From assembly GCA_002010065.2 (NCBI GenBank), contig MTMD02000008.1, forward strand, positions 248,001 through 312,000: DNA of 64,000 bases, in the 5' to 3' direction. The translations under genes were made by a program, and so were the position numbers. Of this stretch, positions 3,731 through 49,843 are shown piece by piece (position 1 is the first letter of the stretch; every line of letters starts with the position of its first letter). This DNA is from Candidatus Pyrohabitans jungbluthii. Its GTDB lineage: Archaea > Hydrothermarchaeota > Hydrothermarchaeia > Hydrothermarchaeales > BMS3B. The notes beneath the pieces are model-generated. The model was not told where the DNA came from, searched no databases, and worked only from the letters and a program-made list of their open reading frames with translations.

Positions 3731-3845
3731 TACTTTTGGACTTTCAAAATCAAGCTCCTCTCAATTGGAAAAGTACCATGGTAAAGATTTATGCAAAGCT
3801 TGCACAAGGGAAGCTTTTTATCTCAGCCCCGCGGAAGTCTTTAAT

Positions 3846-4751
3846 GTGATAAAGGTAGTTTCTCCTGCAACGAGTGCAAATCTTGGGTCTGGCTTTGACG
3901 TCTTTGGCTTGGCGTTAAGCTCGCCTGCTGACGAGATGGGCTTCAAGGAGATTGAGGAGGGTGTGAGGATTAAAGTTAGAGGGTACCCCGTGCCAGAGAG
4001 CAGCGAGGAGAACATCGCTGGCTACGTCGCGGCGCGCGTGCTCTCAGCAAAAGGTGTGGAAGCGGGTGTGGAAATATCCATAAATAAAAAAATACGGCCA
4101 AAGAGCGGCCTAGGCTCAAGCGCAGCTTCAGCGGTTGGCGCAGCGTATGGCGTAAATGAGCTTTTTAATCTCGAGATGAGCAGGGAGGAGATTCTCCACT
4201 TCGCCCTTATGGGCGAGAAATACTTCTCAGGCGCTGAGCATGCAGACAACATCGCCGCCTGCCTGTACGGTGGCTTTACCTGCGTCAGCTACTCTCCGCT
4301 GAAAGTGCTCTCCATCACCCCGCCAGAATTTATGGAGTACGCTGTTCTCTTGCCCGAGGTTGAGGTGGAAACGCGCTCCGCAAGGGCGATGCTCCCCGAG
4401 AAAGTGCCCTTAGCTTCGCATGTGCGCAACCTGGCTAATGCTGCCTTCCTCGTAGCTGGTATGCTGCGAGGCGATGGCAATGCTATACGCACAGGGATGC
4501 GCGACGAGATTATAACGCCTCTGCGTAAAAACTACATACCTCACTTTGAGGAGCTAAGCTCAGCTGCCATTAAAGCGGGTGCCCTGGGATTTGCGATAAG
4601 TGGCTCGGGCCCAGCATGCATAGCGCTGTGCGACTCATCCAAAATAGCTGGCGAGGAGCTTGCAGGCGTGCTTAGGGAGGTTTACCAGAAGCATGGCTTA
4701 GAATGCACCACCTACGCTGGAAAGGTCGGTGTGGGATGCGGTGTAAAGTAG
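3846..4751 (+). CDS. thrB: Homoserine kinase
   Basis: GHMP-family kinase that phosphorylates homoserine for threonine synthesis. From GTG 3846 it is about 301 aa, the usual length. The N-terminus VIKVVSPATSANLGSGFDVF and the ATP-binding loop RPKSGLGSSAASA (about residues 84-96) identify the family, and GFAISGSGPACIAL lies near the C-terminus. The frame is open to 3765, but homologs begin at the chosen position and the extra 27 residues look non-coding. No threonine genes are adjacent, and it is divergent from S13. Confidence 0.93.
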   Translation: MIKVVSPATSANLGSGFDVFGLALSSPADEMGFKEIEEGVRIKVRGYPVPESSEENIAGYVAARVLSAKGVEAGVEISINKKIRPKSGLGSSAASAVGAAYGVNELFNLEMSREEILHFALMGEKYFSGAEHADNIAACLYGGFTCVSYSPLKVLSITPPEFMEYAVLLPEVEVETRSARAMLPEKVPLASHVRNLANAAFLVAGMLRGDGNAIRTGMRDEIITPLRKNYIPHFEELSSAAIKAGALGFAISGSGPACIALCDSSKIAGEELAGVLREVYQKHGLECTTYAGKVGVGCGVK

Positions 4752-4790
4752 GCAGAATTGAATAATAGTTGTTTCGGGGAACGAAAGAAA

Positions 4791-4802
4791 AATTTTATAT
4801 AA
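4791..4802 (+). promoter_or_regulatory. TATA box of the structured RNA gene
   Basis: The string ATTTTATATAAT is preceded by a purine-rich BRE-like stretch. It lies about 27 nt upstream of 4824, exactly where the closing helix of the RNA begins. Confidence 0.75.
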
Positions 4803-4823
4803 TATTACAATCATGCTATATAC

Positions 4824-4953
4824 TGCGGGCTTAGGGGGAGAATAACAGTATTCCCGAGCTCTAAGCCGGGAATACTGTGGCTGACGCACCTAGTGGTGCC
4901 CACTCAGCCAATCCCCGGGCCGGGTATCTTCCCGGCTCCAACCTAAGCTCGCA
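4824..4953 (+). ncRNA. Unassigned structured RNA, ~130 nt
   Basis: The ends pair in a 12-bp closing helix (TGCGGGCTTAGG 4824-4835 with CCTAAGCTCGCA 4942-4953, one G-U). Inside are a 12-bp hairpin (ACAGTATTCCCG 4845-4856 with 4867-4878), an interrupted 6+5-bp hairpin (4879-4909) and a 6-8-bp GC hairpin (4917-4938). GGGA 4836-4839 may also pair with TCCC 4912-4915. The first hairpin loop repeats CTAAGC of the closing helix, allowing an alternative 7-bp pairing. There is its own TATA box upstream and a T-run downstream. It does not match 5S rRNA, SRP RNA or RNase P RNA consensus as I know them. Confidence 0.75.
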
Positions 4954-4969
4954 CCCATTCCATACTCTG

Positions 4970-4977
4970 ATTTTTTG
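4970..4977 (+). terminator. T-rich terminator after the structured RNA
   Basis: ATTTTTTG follows the closing helix by about 17 nt. Archaeal termination commonly uses such T-runs. The next gene has a separate TATA-like box (TTTTATATC, about 4996-5004). Confidence 0.5.
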
Positions 4978-5042
4978 TGACTGATGGGGATATGATTTTT
5001 ATATCACCGCTGCTGAATTCTGCATAGGCAGGGAAAGAGGAT

Positions 5043-5468
5043 ATGGGACTCCACCTTTACGTTGCGGCGCCGCTCTTCAGCGCAGCAGAGCGGGAGTTTA
5101 ACTCGCGGCTTTGTGCTGAGCTTGAACGCCGCGGCTACAGCGTAACGCTGCCTCAGCGAGACTGCTCTGGCGACAGGGAGGAGATATTCAGGTGCTGCCT
5201 TTCAGAGATCCGCAGAGCGAGTGTTGTTATTGCTGTGCTTGAAGGCGCCGGCTGCGACGACGGCACAGCCTTTGAGGTGGGTTATGCCTTTGCGCTGGGA
5301 AAGCGCATCTTAGGTTTAAGAACGGACTTTCGCAACGTGGGCGAGTATGGGGCAAGGGTTAATTTGATGCTGGAAAAAGCGTGCGAGAAGCTTTTAGCAA
5401 GCGAAGAAGAGCTTTTCGTCGCCCTTGAACATATGGAGGGAGAGTATGGAGAAAAAGCTAAGAATTAA
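5043..5468 (+). CDS. Nucleoside 2-deoxyribosyltransferase-family protein
   Basis: This 141-aa protein resembles nucleoside 2-deoxyribosyltransferases and 5'-deoxynucleotide N-hydrolases, which cleave or exchange the base-sugar bond. It starts LYVAAPLFSAAEREF, has the invariant region CDDGTAFEVGYAFALGKRIL (about residues 77-96), and is of family length. Its last 23 nt overlap the AMP phosphorylase gene, so the two are translationally linked and probably act in the same nucleotide salvage route. The exact substrate cannot be read from sequence. Confidence 0.82.
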   Translation: MGLHLYVAAPLFSAAEREFNSRLCAELERRGYSVTLPQRDCSGDREEIFRCCLSEIRRASVVIAVLEGAGCDDGTAFEVGYAFALGKRILGLRTDFRNVGEYGARVNLMLEKACEKLLASEEELFVALEHMEGEYGEKAKN

Positions 5469-6981
5469 AGCTCTGGACATAAAAGAGGGCAGGTATGAGA
5501 TAACCCTCAATGAGGAGGATGCCCGCGAACTCGGTTTGCACACCCGCGACAGGGTGAGGGTTTACCATAATGGCGAGTACCGCGTAGCCAGCGTTAATTT
5601 GTCCTCTCGAGCTATAGGCAAAGGTGAAGCAGGAGTTACCATCGACCTTCAGGAGGCATTTAATCTTAAGGAAGGGAACTTCATAACCGTTGTGCCCACG
5701 GCCAAGCCTAAATCCGTGGAGTTCATTCGCAAGAAGATGGATGGGCTTGTGTTAAATGAGGGCGAGATTGATGCGATTATCAAAGATGTGGTAAACCGCG
5801 ACCTGAGTGATATTGAGATTACGGCTTTTATAACTGCACTTTATATAAACGGGCTGAACATGGAGGAGGCCGCAAGCTTAAGCAAGAAAATGGCTGAGAA
5901 CGGAGAGATGCTGGAGCTAAGGCGAAGACCAGTGTTCGACAAGCACAGCATCGGGGGTGTGCCGGGCAACAAAATTACCCTGCTCATCGTGCCCATCGTC
6001 GCTGCTGCCGGGCTTGTGATACCCAAAACCTCTTCACGGGCGATTACCTCAGCTGCGGGTACAGCTGACATTATGGAAGTGCTCGCACCAGTGAGCTTTT
6101 CAGCGCGCGAAATTGAGGAGATTGTGGATAGGACCAATGGAATAATCGCATGGGGGGGCGGACTTAACCTTGCGCCGGCGGATGATATTTTTATCCAGGT
6201 GGAGTATCCCCTTGCGATAGACCCCCACTACTTAGCGCTGTGCAGCGTTATGGCTAAGAAGTATGCGGTGGGCGCTGATTTTGTGGTCATCGACATACCC
6301 ATGGGCAGCGAGGCAAAGGTTAAGACAATGGAAGAAGCGAAGCGCTTTGCAAGAGAGTTTATTGAACTGGGGGAGAAGATAGGGATAAATGTGGAGTGCG
6401 CCATAACCTACGGCGACAAGCCTATAGGTAGAGCCATAGGCCCTGCTTTAGAAGCTAGAGAAGCGCTTGCAACCCTGGAGAAGGGCGCTGGACCGAGCAG
6501 CTTTGTGGAGAAGTCTCTGGAGCTTGCGGGCATACTTCTCGAGGCAGGGGGCGTAGCGAGCAGGGGCAGAGGCAAGGAGGCGGCGAAGCAGATCCTTCGC
6601 TCAGGCAAGGCTTTAAAGAAGATGAAGGAGATAATCGCGGCCCAGGGGGGAGATGAAAAAATTAAGGCAGAGGATATCCACGTTGGCGAATACCGCGAGG
6701 TTATAACCAGCGATGGCGAGGGTTATGTAATCCACATATCCAATCGCGCTCTGGTGAGAATCGCCAGAGAGGCGGGCTCACCAAAGGATAAGGGTGCCGG
6801 GATACTTCTCCACGTGACCAAGGGTGAGAAGGTTAAGAAGGGCGACGTTCTCATGGAGATCTACGCAGATAGCGAGTACCGCTTAGAGCAGGCAGTGAAG
6901 CTGGCGAAGCAGCTCAAGCCGATAACCCTCGAGGGGATGGTTTTGGCAAGGGTGCCAGGGATTACCTACTTTGAGCACTGA
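5446..6981 (+). CDS. deoA: AMP phosphorylase
   Basis: Converts AMP (also CMP/UMP) and phosphate to base and ribose-1,5-bisphosphate, the first step of the archaeal AMP pathway. The 511-aa protein has the archaeal N-terminal extension (residues 1-90) before the pyrimidine-phosphorylase fold. Catalytic segments are KHSIGGVPGNK (about 166-176) and TSSRAITSAAGTAD (about 195-208). The start at ATG 5446 has GGAGG just upstream. Partner enzymes R15P isomerase and RuBisCO are at 48917 and 55062. Confidence 0.95.
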   Translation: MEKKLRIKALDIKEGRYEITLNEEDARELGLHTRDRVRVYHNGEYRVASVNLSSRAIGKGEAGVTIDLQEAFNLKEGNFITVVPTAKPKSVEFIRKKMDGLVLNEGEIDAIIKDVVNRDLSDIEITAFITALYINGLNMEEAASLSKKMAENGEMLELRRRPVFDKHSIGGVPGNKITLLIVPIVAAAGLVIPKTSSRAITSAAGTADIMEVLAPVSFSAREIEEIVDRTNGIIAWGGGLNLAPADDIFIQVEYPLAIDPHYLALCSVMAKKYAVGADFVVIDIPMGSEAKVKTMEEAKRFAREFIELGEKIGINVECAITYGDKPIGRAIGPALEAREALATLEKGAGPSSFVEKSLELAGILLEAGGVASRGRGKEAAKQILRSGKALKKMKEIIAAQGGDEKIKAEDIHVGEYREVITSDGEGYVIHISNRALVRIAREAGSPKDKGAGILLHVTKGEKVKKGDVLMEIYADSEYRLEQAVKLAKQLKPITLEGMVLARVPGITYFEH

Positions 6982-8409: not shown

Positions 8410-8736
8410 ATGATAACTCTTCAAGTTATTGACGATATCGTCTCTGAAATAAAGAAATTTCTTCTCAAGCATTACGGAGAAAAGATAAAGAAGGTTATCG
8501 TTTACGGCTCTTTTGCGAGAGGCGAAGCCACACCTGATTCTGATATTGACCTTTTAGTTGTGGTTGATGATTCTCTTGATCCAAGGAAGGTCGAAGAGAA
8601 GCTCGATGATCTACTATTTGAGATTTTGCTGAACAGAAAGGAGCTAGTTTCTGTTATTGCAGTTAAGGAGACGATGTTTGAAAACTACAGGTCGCCTTTA
8701 CTGCTGAATGTAAAAGAAGAGGGCATTACAGTATGA
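8410..8736 (+). CDS. mntA: MNT-type nucleotidyltransferase (antitoxin of HEPN/MNT pair)
   Basis: This 108-aa minimal nucleotidyltransferase has the motif GSFARGEA (about 33-40) and metal-binding DSDIDLLV (about 43-50). Family members AMPylate and neutralise a partner HEPN RNase encoded just downstream. The next gene starts ATGA-coupled at 8733 and opens as a HEPN protein, but that partner is broken. A palindrome overlaps the promoter, suggesting autoregulation. GC is lower than in the flanking core genes. Confidence 0.88.
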   Translation: MITLQVIDDIVSEIKKFLLKHYGEKIKKVIVYGSFARGEATPDSDIDLLVVVDDSLDPRKVEEKLDDLLFEILLNRKELVSVIAVKETMFENYRSPLLLNVKEEGITV

Positions 8737-9002
8737 GAGAAGTGGACGACCTCATTAATAAGGCAAAGAGGTTTTTGAGAACCGCCGAGCTTGCCTTTAA
8801 TGACGGTGACTACGATTCCACTAAATCGGATATAATCTCTCTAATTTCTCTGAAAACCCCTCAATATCTGGCTTCTCACAATATTTATGCATTTCAGGAT
8901 TTTCAACTGGATGCTTATGCCAGCCACCAAGATTATCATACCCAAATGTCCTTTTTCCTTCCATTATTAATGCAAAGTCAATTATCATTTGAAGAATTAT
9001 AG
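8733..9002 (+). pseudogene. hepT: Truncated HEPN-domain toxin gene
   Basis: The first ~30 codons (MREVDDLINKAKRFLRTAEL then AFNDGDYDST) match the N-terminal helix of HEPN proteins paired with MNT. From about 8822 the frame continues into unrelated sequence and lacks the catalytic Rx4-6H region. The breakpoint coincides with the stop codon of a minus-strand fragment at 8821. Start overlaps the MNT stop as ATGA. Confidence 0.75.
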
Positions 9003-48794: not shown

Positions 48795-48916
48795 GCAGGT
48801 GTAAGATTGCATTGAAAATATTTATCATTTTCTCTATACTAAGGAACGACAAAAAAGGATTATGTAAGGGTGTGATATTTATACCTGGGATGGCAGAATA
48901 TACTTGGGGAGACGTA

Positions 48917-49843
48917 ATGAACTACGAGCTGGTTAAGGAGACGGCAAGCAAAATTGCACGCATGGAGATTCGGGGCGCGGCGAAGATTGCCCAGAGCGCG
49001 GCTCAGGCTCTTCGCGATTTCGCCCTTAATTACCAGGGAGAGAGCGCGGCAAAGTTCCTCTCAGAACTTGAGAAGGCTGGCACCATCCTCAAGGAGGCGA
49101 GGCCGACTGCGGTAAGCCTTCCCAACGCAGTGAACTATGTGCTCCTTGCTGCTAGAGGAAAGGGCGAGGTAGAGGAGATTAGAAGGGCGGTGGTTAACGC
49201 AGCAGAGGACTTCATTGCCCGCTCAAAGAAAGCGCTCGGCAGAATAGGAGAGATAGGAGCCAGACGTATAAAGAGCGGCGACATTATACTTACCCACTGC
49301 AACTCCCAGGCGGCGCTTTCTGTGATAACTACCGCCTTTCGTCAAGGCAAAGATATAGAGGTGATTGCCACCGAGTCGAGACCACGCTACCAGGGGCATA
49401 TTACAGCGAGGCAGCTCGCCGAGCAGGGCATACCGGTGACGCTTATCGTCGACTCTGCTGTGCGCACATTTATGAAAGAGGTGGATAAAGTAATAGTGGG
49501 CGCGGACAGCATAGCCGCGAACGGGGCGGTGATTAATAAAATTGGCACCTCGCAGATAGCGCTCGCTGCCCACGAGGCGAGGGTGGTCTTCATGGTGGCT
49601 GCCGAAACATACAAGTTCCATCCCAAGACGCTGATAGGCGCGCTGGTGGAGATTGAGGAGCGCCCCAGCGAGGAGGTTGCCAACCCAGAGGAATTCCCTG
49701 GGGTAAAGATTCGAAACCCCGCCTTCGACGTCACCCCGCCCGAGTACATAGATTTGATAATCACTGAGAAGGGCGTAATTCCACCACAGGCGGCGATAAT
49801 GGTGTTAAAGGAGGAGTTCGGGCTGGAGCTTGAGAAGGAATAG
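48917..49843 (+). CDS. Ribose-1,5-bisphosphate isomerase
   Basis: Converts ribose-1,5-bisphosphate from AMP phosphorylase into RuBP for RuBisCO. The 308-aa protein is eIF2B-alpha-like but carries the enzyme features: [16 protein letters not shown], catalytic cysteine C128 in [27 protein letters not shown] and D197 in [13 protein letters not shown] 48890 is an alternative start. 48917 is preferred because a TATA-like GATATTTATA at about 48873 would start transcription past 48890, and GGGGAG precedes 48917. Confidence 0.92.

What the first reader, a model, noticed from the sequence alone, without database searches (positions are those of the whole stretch)
4791..4980. Unassigned structured RNA with its own promoter and terminator
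A TATA box sits about 27 nt before the first base of a 12-bp closing helix; three hairpins lie inside; a T-run follows. The loop of the 12-bp hairpin (4861-4866, CTAAGC) repeats part of the 3' closing strand, so GGCTTAG near the 5' end can pair perfectly with either. That suggests a pseudoknot or a two-state switch. It matches no standard archaeal RNA I can recall and lies between genes with separate promoters.
Basis: partly seen in the sequence, partly recalled or inferred. Interest (0 to 1): 0.8.

Follow-up and report, generated by a model that had tools for sequence, protein, structure and literature searches.

The report
Motility-regulon structured RNA in Pyrohabitans archaea
A real, previously undescribed folded RNA, found only in one genus of uncultured hydrothermal archaea, carries the same promoter element as the cell's swimming (archaellum) and chemotaxis genes, so it is probably a regulatory RNA of motility.

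Summary
Window 4824-4953 (+) encodes a structured RNA: a 12-bp closing helix, three inner hairpins, and a TATA box about 27 nt upstream. It matches no Rfam family. Homologues occur in all five genomes of its genus (Candidatus Hydrothermarchaeota / Pyrohabitans) and in none of 18 other genomes of the class. Ten closing-helix pairs never vary in sequence. The inner hairpins change sequence but keep pairing, and all five copies fold far better than shuffles. The proposed pseudoknot or switch fails: the CTAAGC loop repeat is absent in three of five homologues.

The new finding is the promoter. A palindrome TTTCG-N5-CGAAA sits directly upstream of BRE/TATA, exact in four homologues and one mismatch off in the fifth. 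In the same genomes this element marks archaellin, chemotaxis and archaellum-accessory promoters (18 of the 25 other exact sites). It is absent from the rRNA and tRNA promoters checked. So the RNA appears to belong to the motility regulon.

Best reading: a trans-acting regulatory sRNA of motility, acting by base pairing or through a protein bound to the invariant helix. No target was found and no expression data exist.

The parts
4772..4786 (+). Palindromic operator TTTCG-N5-CGAAA shared with archaellum/chemotaxis promoters
   Evidence: Exact in 4 of 5 homologous promoters, 1 mismatch in G003, spacer varies; same element before archaellin, che and arlC/D genes
4787..4802 (+). BRE-like A-rich stretch and TATA box (TTTTATATAA at 4793-4802)
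   Evidence: Sequence; position relative to closing helix constant in all five homologues
4815..4823 (+). Conserved AT-rich initiator-proximal element (GCTATATAC; GCTATWTAM in homologues)
   Evidence: Alignment
4824..4835 (+). 5' strand of closing helix P1 (TGCGGGCTTAGG), inferred transcript 5' end
   Evidence: TGCGGGCTTAG identical in all five genomes; fold
4835..4839 (+). 5' strand of short inner helix P2 (pairs with 4912-4916; G4835 competes with P1); weakly supported
   Evidence: MFE fold of G000; does not form in G002/G003 folds
4845..4878 (+). Hairpin H1 (12 bp plus 3 bp)
   Evidence: Fold; two pairs with two-sided changes; hairpin shorter in G002/G003 and stem partly broken in G001
4879..4909 (+). 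Hairpin H2, present in all five
   Evidence: About 96% of cells paired; two-sided changes
4912..4916 (+). 3' strand of P2
   Evidence: MFE fold
4917..4938 (+). Hairpin H3 (lost in G002)
   Evidence: Fold; 100% of cells paired in the four that have it
4942..4953 (+). 3' strand of closing helix P1 (CCTAAGCTCGCA)
   Evidence: CCTAAGCTCGC identical in all five genomes
4954..4976 (+). Pyrimidine-rich 3' tail and T6 run (4971-4976), possible termination region; T-run not conserved
   Evidence: Sequence, alignment
4996..5004 (+). TATA box of the downstream nucleoside 2-deoxyribosyltransferase gene (separate promoter)
   Evidence: T/A-rich TATA conserved in all five
5043..5468 (+). Downstream gene, nucleoside 2-deoxyribosyltransferase family (neighbour, not part of the RNA)
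   Evidence: PF05014, E 1.5e-22; follows the RNA in 5 of 5 genomes
3765..4751 (+). Upstream gene, GHMP kinase (homoserine-kinase-like) (neighbour; not linked to the RNA in G004)
   Evidence: PF00288/PF08544; synteny

Best explanation
This is a stand-alone structured small RNA of about 130-150 nt in a genus of Hydrothermarchaeota (Pyrohabitans and relatives). It is transcribed from a regulated promoter of the archaellum/chemotaxis regulon. A dimeric transcription factor is inferred to bind TTTCG-N5-CGAAA directly upstream of BRE/TATA, as at the archaellin and chemotaxis promoters, so the RNA is made together with the swimming apparatus. The RNA starts at its closing helix, which pairs its 5' and 3' ends and should stabilise it in a thermophile. 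It most likely acts in trans as a regulatory sRNA that tunes motility or chemotaxis output, through an effector (mRNA or protein) that reads the invariant P1 helix or tail sequence. Shown by sequence: the fold and its conservation, the promoter, and membership of the shared promoter class. Inferred: expression, control by the motility regulator, and trans-regulation.
For: Homologues in 5 of 5 genus genomes and in none of 18 other class genomes. A pattern scan of 84,980 species finds only this genus plus one Sutterella hit, which scores 17 bits against 61-146 for the real ones. All five fold with z from -4.6 to -8.3, and the interior alone from -3.2 to -8.6. Five pairs change on both sides; 0 of 500 shuffles reach the covariation score. 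The palindrome is exact in 4 of 5 homologous promoters with varying spacers. Of 29 exact palindromes in the five genomes, 4 are at the RNA and 18 at archaellin, chemotaxis or archaellum-accessory promoters (gene identities). The motility cluster L092 holds 5 sites (up to 1 mismatch) against 0.42 expected, 0 of 200 shuffles, and spacing to TATA is nearly the same at the RNA and the archaellin promoter. rRNA and tRNA promoters examined lack it. Precedent: Haloferax sRNA63 deletion raises flagellin and chemotaxis transcripts and swarming (PMC3956466).
Against: No complementarity to the leaders of archaellin, response-regulator or neighbouring regulon genes exceeds shuffles consistently. P1 strands have no conserved complementary mRNA site in the motility clusters. 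The palindrome also marks at least one non-motility promoter (pyruvate carboxylase subunit B in G001) and sites near an RPA-like gene, so the regulator may be broader than motility. No transcript data exist. The RNA lies far from the motility cluster, next to a nucleotide-salvage gene.
Confidence: 0.55

Rival explanations
1. The RNA is a protein-binding scaffold or sponge in the motility regulon. A protein recognises the invariant P1 duplex and the RNA titrates or assembles it, rather than base-pairing with mRNAs.
For: P1 is the only part fixed in sequence in all five genomes, while the interior varies in sequence and length. No mRNA complementarity found.
Against: No candidate binding protein. 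Ro60/TROVE, the classic partner of RNAs with a conserved terminal stem, is absent from all ten family genomes. No repeated binding motif as in CsrB-like sponges.
Confidence: 0.22
2. It is a cis-acting leader of the nucleoside deoxyribosyltransferase / AMP-phosphorylase-type operon, i.e. a riboswitch-like element.
For: The RNA lies 67-88 nt upstream of that gene in 5 of 5 genomes, including G004 where the upstream neighbour changed. The T-run is not conserved.
Against: A second TATA box between RNA and gene is conserved in all five. The operator is that of motility genes. The closed 5'-3' stem leaves no obvious expression platform. In the sister genus the gene exists without the RNA.
Confidence: 0.1
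3. It is a highly diverged or new housekeeping or guide RNA, for example pairing with rRNA through the P1 5' strand.
For: P1 5' strand CGGGCTTAG is complementary to nine bases of the 23S rRNA (CTAAGCCCG, L072 9965-9973).
Against: A nine-base match is within chance for this search. No box C, no H/ACA pocket with a following ANA. The Rfam scan is negative. The promoter carries a regulator site that the rRNA and tRNA promoters lack.
Confidence: 0.05
4. Two-state switch or pseudoknot between P1 and the H1 loop.
For: Loop CTAAGC repeats part of the P1 3' strand in G000, and the G001 loop is nearly the same.
Against: Loop is CACAT in G004 and CAACCA in G002 and G003, while P1 is unchanged.
Confidence: 0.03

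Closest known systems
Haloferax volcanii sRNA63 and other haloarchaeal intergenic sRNAs affecting swarming (PMC3956466)
   Same: Stand-alone archaeal intergenic sRNA tied to flagellin/chemotaxis expression; narrow phylogenetic range
   Different: There the link was found by deletion phenotype; here by a shared promoter operator. No sequence or structural relation was tested or is implied
Y RNA / bacterial YrlA (Ro60-bound RNAs)
   Same: 5' and 3' ends form a conserved stem; variable interior
   Different: No Ro60/TROVE gene in the family, no Rfam match; P1 is a continuous helix without the bulge I recall for Ro binding
EarA-dependent archaellum promoters (Methanococcus, Thermococcales)
   Same: Activator site next to BRE/TATA of archaellum genes
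   Different: Reported EarA site in Methanococcus is TACATA (PMC10665913); here it is TTTCG-N5-CGAAA, the regulator is unidentified, and an RNA gene is included
Archaeal H/ACA and C/D guide RNAs
   Same: Small structured archaeal RNAs with own promoters
   Different: No box C, no pseudouridylation pocket

Membership tests
Any Rfam 15 family (5S, SRP, RNase P, Hgc RNAs, snoRNA, etc.) | Score at or above a family's gathering threshold | tested here: not met
   No such match in the window stretch or in four homologous loci, even at permissive E-values
RNase P RNA / rRNA | Being the genome's copy of that RNA | tested here: not met
   RNase P RNA at C8:80134-80490; 16S and 23S on C14
C/D box guide RNA | Box C RTGATGA and box D CTGA flanking guides | tested here: not met
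   No box C in any homologue
H/ACA guide RNA | Hairpin with pseudouridylation pocket followed by ANA | tested here: not met
   Hairpins lack an adequate internal loop in the folds; no conserved ACA after a hairpin
Y RNA (Ro60-bound) | Ro60/TROVE partner in genome | tested here: not met
   PF05731 absent in 10 of 10 family genomes
Motility (archaellum/chemotaxis) regulon of this genus | TTTCG-N5-CGAAA directly upstream of BRE/TATA | tested here: met
Motility (archaellum/chemotaxis) regulon of this genus | Co-expression with archaellin genes / binding by the same factor | not testable with these tools
   No transcript or binding data available
Trans-acting regulatory sRNA | Conserved base-pairing to target mRNAs | tested here: inconclusive
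   No leader of five regulon promoter groups pairs better than shuffles consistently; the whole transcriptome was not searched
Riboswitch / cis leader | Continuous transcript into the downstream gene | tested here: inconclusive
   Conserved separate TATA box between RNA and gene in all five; transcription itself untested

The most novel reading that the evidence does not exclude
A non-coding RNA hard-wired into the archaellum/chemotaxis regulon by the same operator as the archaellins, feeding back on swimming through a protein or mRNAs that read its invariant closing helix: an sRNA integrated into the transcriptional motility circuit of an archaeon.
Probability: 0.4. Interest if true: 0.72.

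Novelty: new variant of a known kind. Interest (0 to 1): 0.55.

Why it matters
The archaeal sRNAs linked to motility that I found reported came from knock-out phenotypes in haloarchaea. Here comparative genomics alone ties a new RNA family to the archaellum/chemotaxis promoters of an uncultured archaeal genus, gives the likely operator sequence of that regulon, and offers directly testable predictions about how an archaeon coordinates RNA regulation with swimming.

Tried and rejected
Pseudoknot/switch: rejected, loop repeat not conserved. Second copy in the window at 48929-49036 (-), 20.7 bits: lies antisense inside a protein-coding ORF, treated as chance. Copies in the sister genera: none at the orthologous loci with the unfiltered model or genome-wide. 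Sutterella pattern hit: treated as chance. Target search against leaders of archaellin, response-regulator and other regulon genes: no consistent signal. P1 complementarity to motility clusters and rRNA: chance-level matches only. Ro60/Y RNA: no partner gene. Coding potential: no shared small ORF across the five homologues.

Full report
Observation. The 168-nt stretch 4818-4985 folds at -81.5 kcal/mol, z = -7.9, with none of 200 shuffles as stable. The closing helix P1 is 4824-4835 with 4942-4953; three hairpins lie inside; a TATA box (4793-4802) is centred about 27 nt before P1. Nothing in Rfam 15 reaches a gathering threshold, and the permissive hits are chance-level; the same holds for four homologous loci. 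RNase P RNA and the rRNAs are elsewhere in the genome.

Relatives. Near homologues were found by DNA search in the genus, and two diverged copies in G002 and G003 could be aligned once reverse-complemented. A covariance model built from the five copies finds exactly those five in 23 genomes of the class, with E-values from 1e-26 to 2e-9. A scan for the two P1 strands across 84,980 species returned the same genus (records named Candidatus Hydrothermarchaeota, Candidatus Pyrohabitans JdFR-17 and an unclassified euryarchaeote) and one Sutterella contig that scores only 17 bits. The RNA is therefore restricted to one genus as far as these collections show, with one copy per genome.

Structure and constraint. 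P1 is nearly invariant: ten pairs never vary, and the two end pairs break in one or two genomes. It therefore gives no covariation evidence; its sequence itself is constrained. The interior is different: H1, H2 and H3 change sequence and length but keep pairing, with five pairs changed on both sides; 0 of 500 shuffles reach the covariation score and sliding the partners lowers pairing from 88% to at most 46%. That alignment was fitted to the model, so it leans toward the structure; the unfitted alignment gave weaker counts. Independent support comes from folding each copy alone: z -4.6 to -8.3 for the whole, -3.2 to -8.6 for the interior without P1. H3 is lost in G002 and H1 is partly broken in G001. 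The CTAAGC repeat that suggested a pseudoknot or switch is absent in G002, G003 and G004, so that idea is dropped.

Transcription unit. The TATA-to-P1 distance is the same in all five, consistent with a transcript beginning at the first base of P1. A second TATA box between RNA and the downstream gene is conserved in all five. In G004 the upstream neighbour is a different gene (a CTP_transf_like nucleotidyltransferase, NMNAT-like), yet promoter, RNA and downstream gene stay together. The T-run behind the RNA is not conserved.

The regulon. Upstream of the TATA box lies TTTCG-N5-CGAAA (4772-4786), exact in four genomes with a varying spacer, one mismatch in the fifth: the pattern expected of a dimeric regulator's site. 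A search of the five genomes found 29 exact sites. Reading their surroundings and annotating the genes gives: 4 at this RNA; 5 at the archaellin operon; 4 at a divergent pair of small unknown genes between the archaellins and cheB; 4 between a response regulator and a histidine kinase/cheY operon; 4 at the cheD and arlC/D-E side; 1 at cheR (assigned by its position after cheB and its sequence); 1 at a FlaH/FlaI/FlaJ-like secretion locus; 3 near an RPA-like gene; 1 at pyruvate carboxylase B; 2 inside genes. So 18 of the 25 sites not at the RNA are at motility genes. Two cautions: orthologous sites in five genomes are not independent, so the count rests on about five separate promoters; and the raw count of the pattern in whole genomes does not exceed the control, so the evidence is in the positions. 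The motility cluster L092 holds five sites at up to one mismatch against 0.42 expected, 0 of 200 shuffles, whereas the 64-kb window has one exact site, the RNA's, and two single-mismatch ones, no more than chance in number. Site-to-TATA spacing at the RNA and the archaellin promoter is nearly the same. rRNA and tRNA promoters examined do not have the element.

Mechanism. The best-supported reading is a regulatory sRNA expressed together with the archaellum and chemotaxis genes. The shared operator is shown; co-expression and the direction of control are inferred. How it acts is open: pairing of RNA parts with the leaders of five regulon promoter groups was not better than shuffles in a consistent way, and no conserved mRNA complement of P1 was found in the motility clusters. 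The invariant P1 sequence with variable interior fits recognition by a protein at least as well as antisense pairing. Ro60 is absent. A candidate regulator for the operator is the CheC-V4R-wHTH protein encoded beside the archaellins, but this is a guess from domains.

Precedent and novelty. In Haloferax volcanii, deleting sRNA63 raised flagellin and chemotaxis transcripts and swarming, and six of 17 tested sRNA mutants changed swarming (PMC3956466). EarA, the known euryarchaeal archaellum activator, uses TACATA in Methanococcus (PMC10665913), unlike the element here. The RNA is a new family and a new variant of the known kind 'archaeal motility-linked sRNA', reached through promoter logic rather than phenotype.

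Noticed in passing
L092:4863-6206 (-) (G000:C8:375862-377205): Protein with CheC phosphatase, V4R (MsvR-like) and TrmB-type wHTH domains beside the archaellins: a possible chemotaxis-linked transcription factor and candidate binder of the TTTCG-N5-CGAAA operator.
   Followed up: partly
L092:9076-9570 (-) and L092:9671-10012 (+): Two conserved small proteins of unknown family (about 164 and 112 aa), divergently transcribed from one palindromic operator between archaellin genes and cheB in four genomes; no Pfam or NCBIfam match above threshold.
   Followed up: partly
L096:1881-1980 (+): Behind a motility operator next to arlC/D-E and cheD, the sequence reads as the start of a small Cys-rich (CPVCG) zinc-finger-like protein.
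   Followed up: no
L101:1840-1878; G000:C8:341442-341461: The same promoter architecture stands before the pyruvate carboxylase subunit B gene in G001, with a similar A-rich/TATA match at G000:C8:341442, hinting that the regulator also covers carbon metabolism.
   Followed up: no
window 48812-49843 (+) and 5425-6981 (+): A ribose-1,5-bisphosphate-isomerase-like ORF (judged from sequence) and an AMP-phosphorylase-like (Glycos_transf_3/PYNP_C) gene lie in the same window, as in archaeal AMP-salvage pathways.
   Followed up: no
window 8410-9002 (+): A nucleotidyltransferase-like ORF (MNT type) followed by a small HEPN-like ORF, possible toxin-antitoxin pair; judged from sequence only.
   Followed up: no
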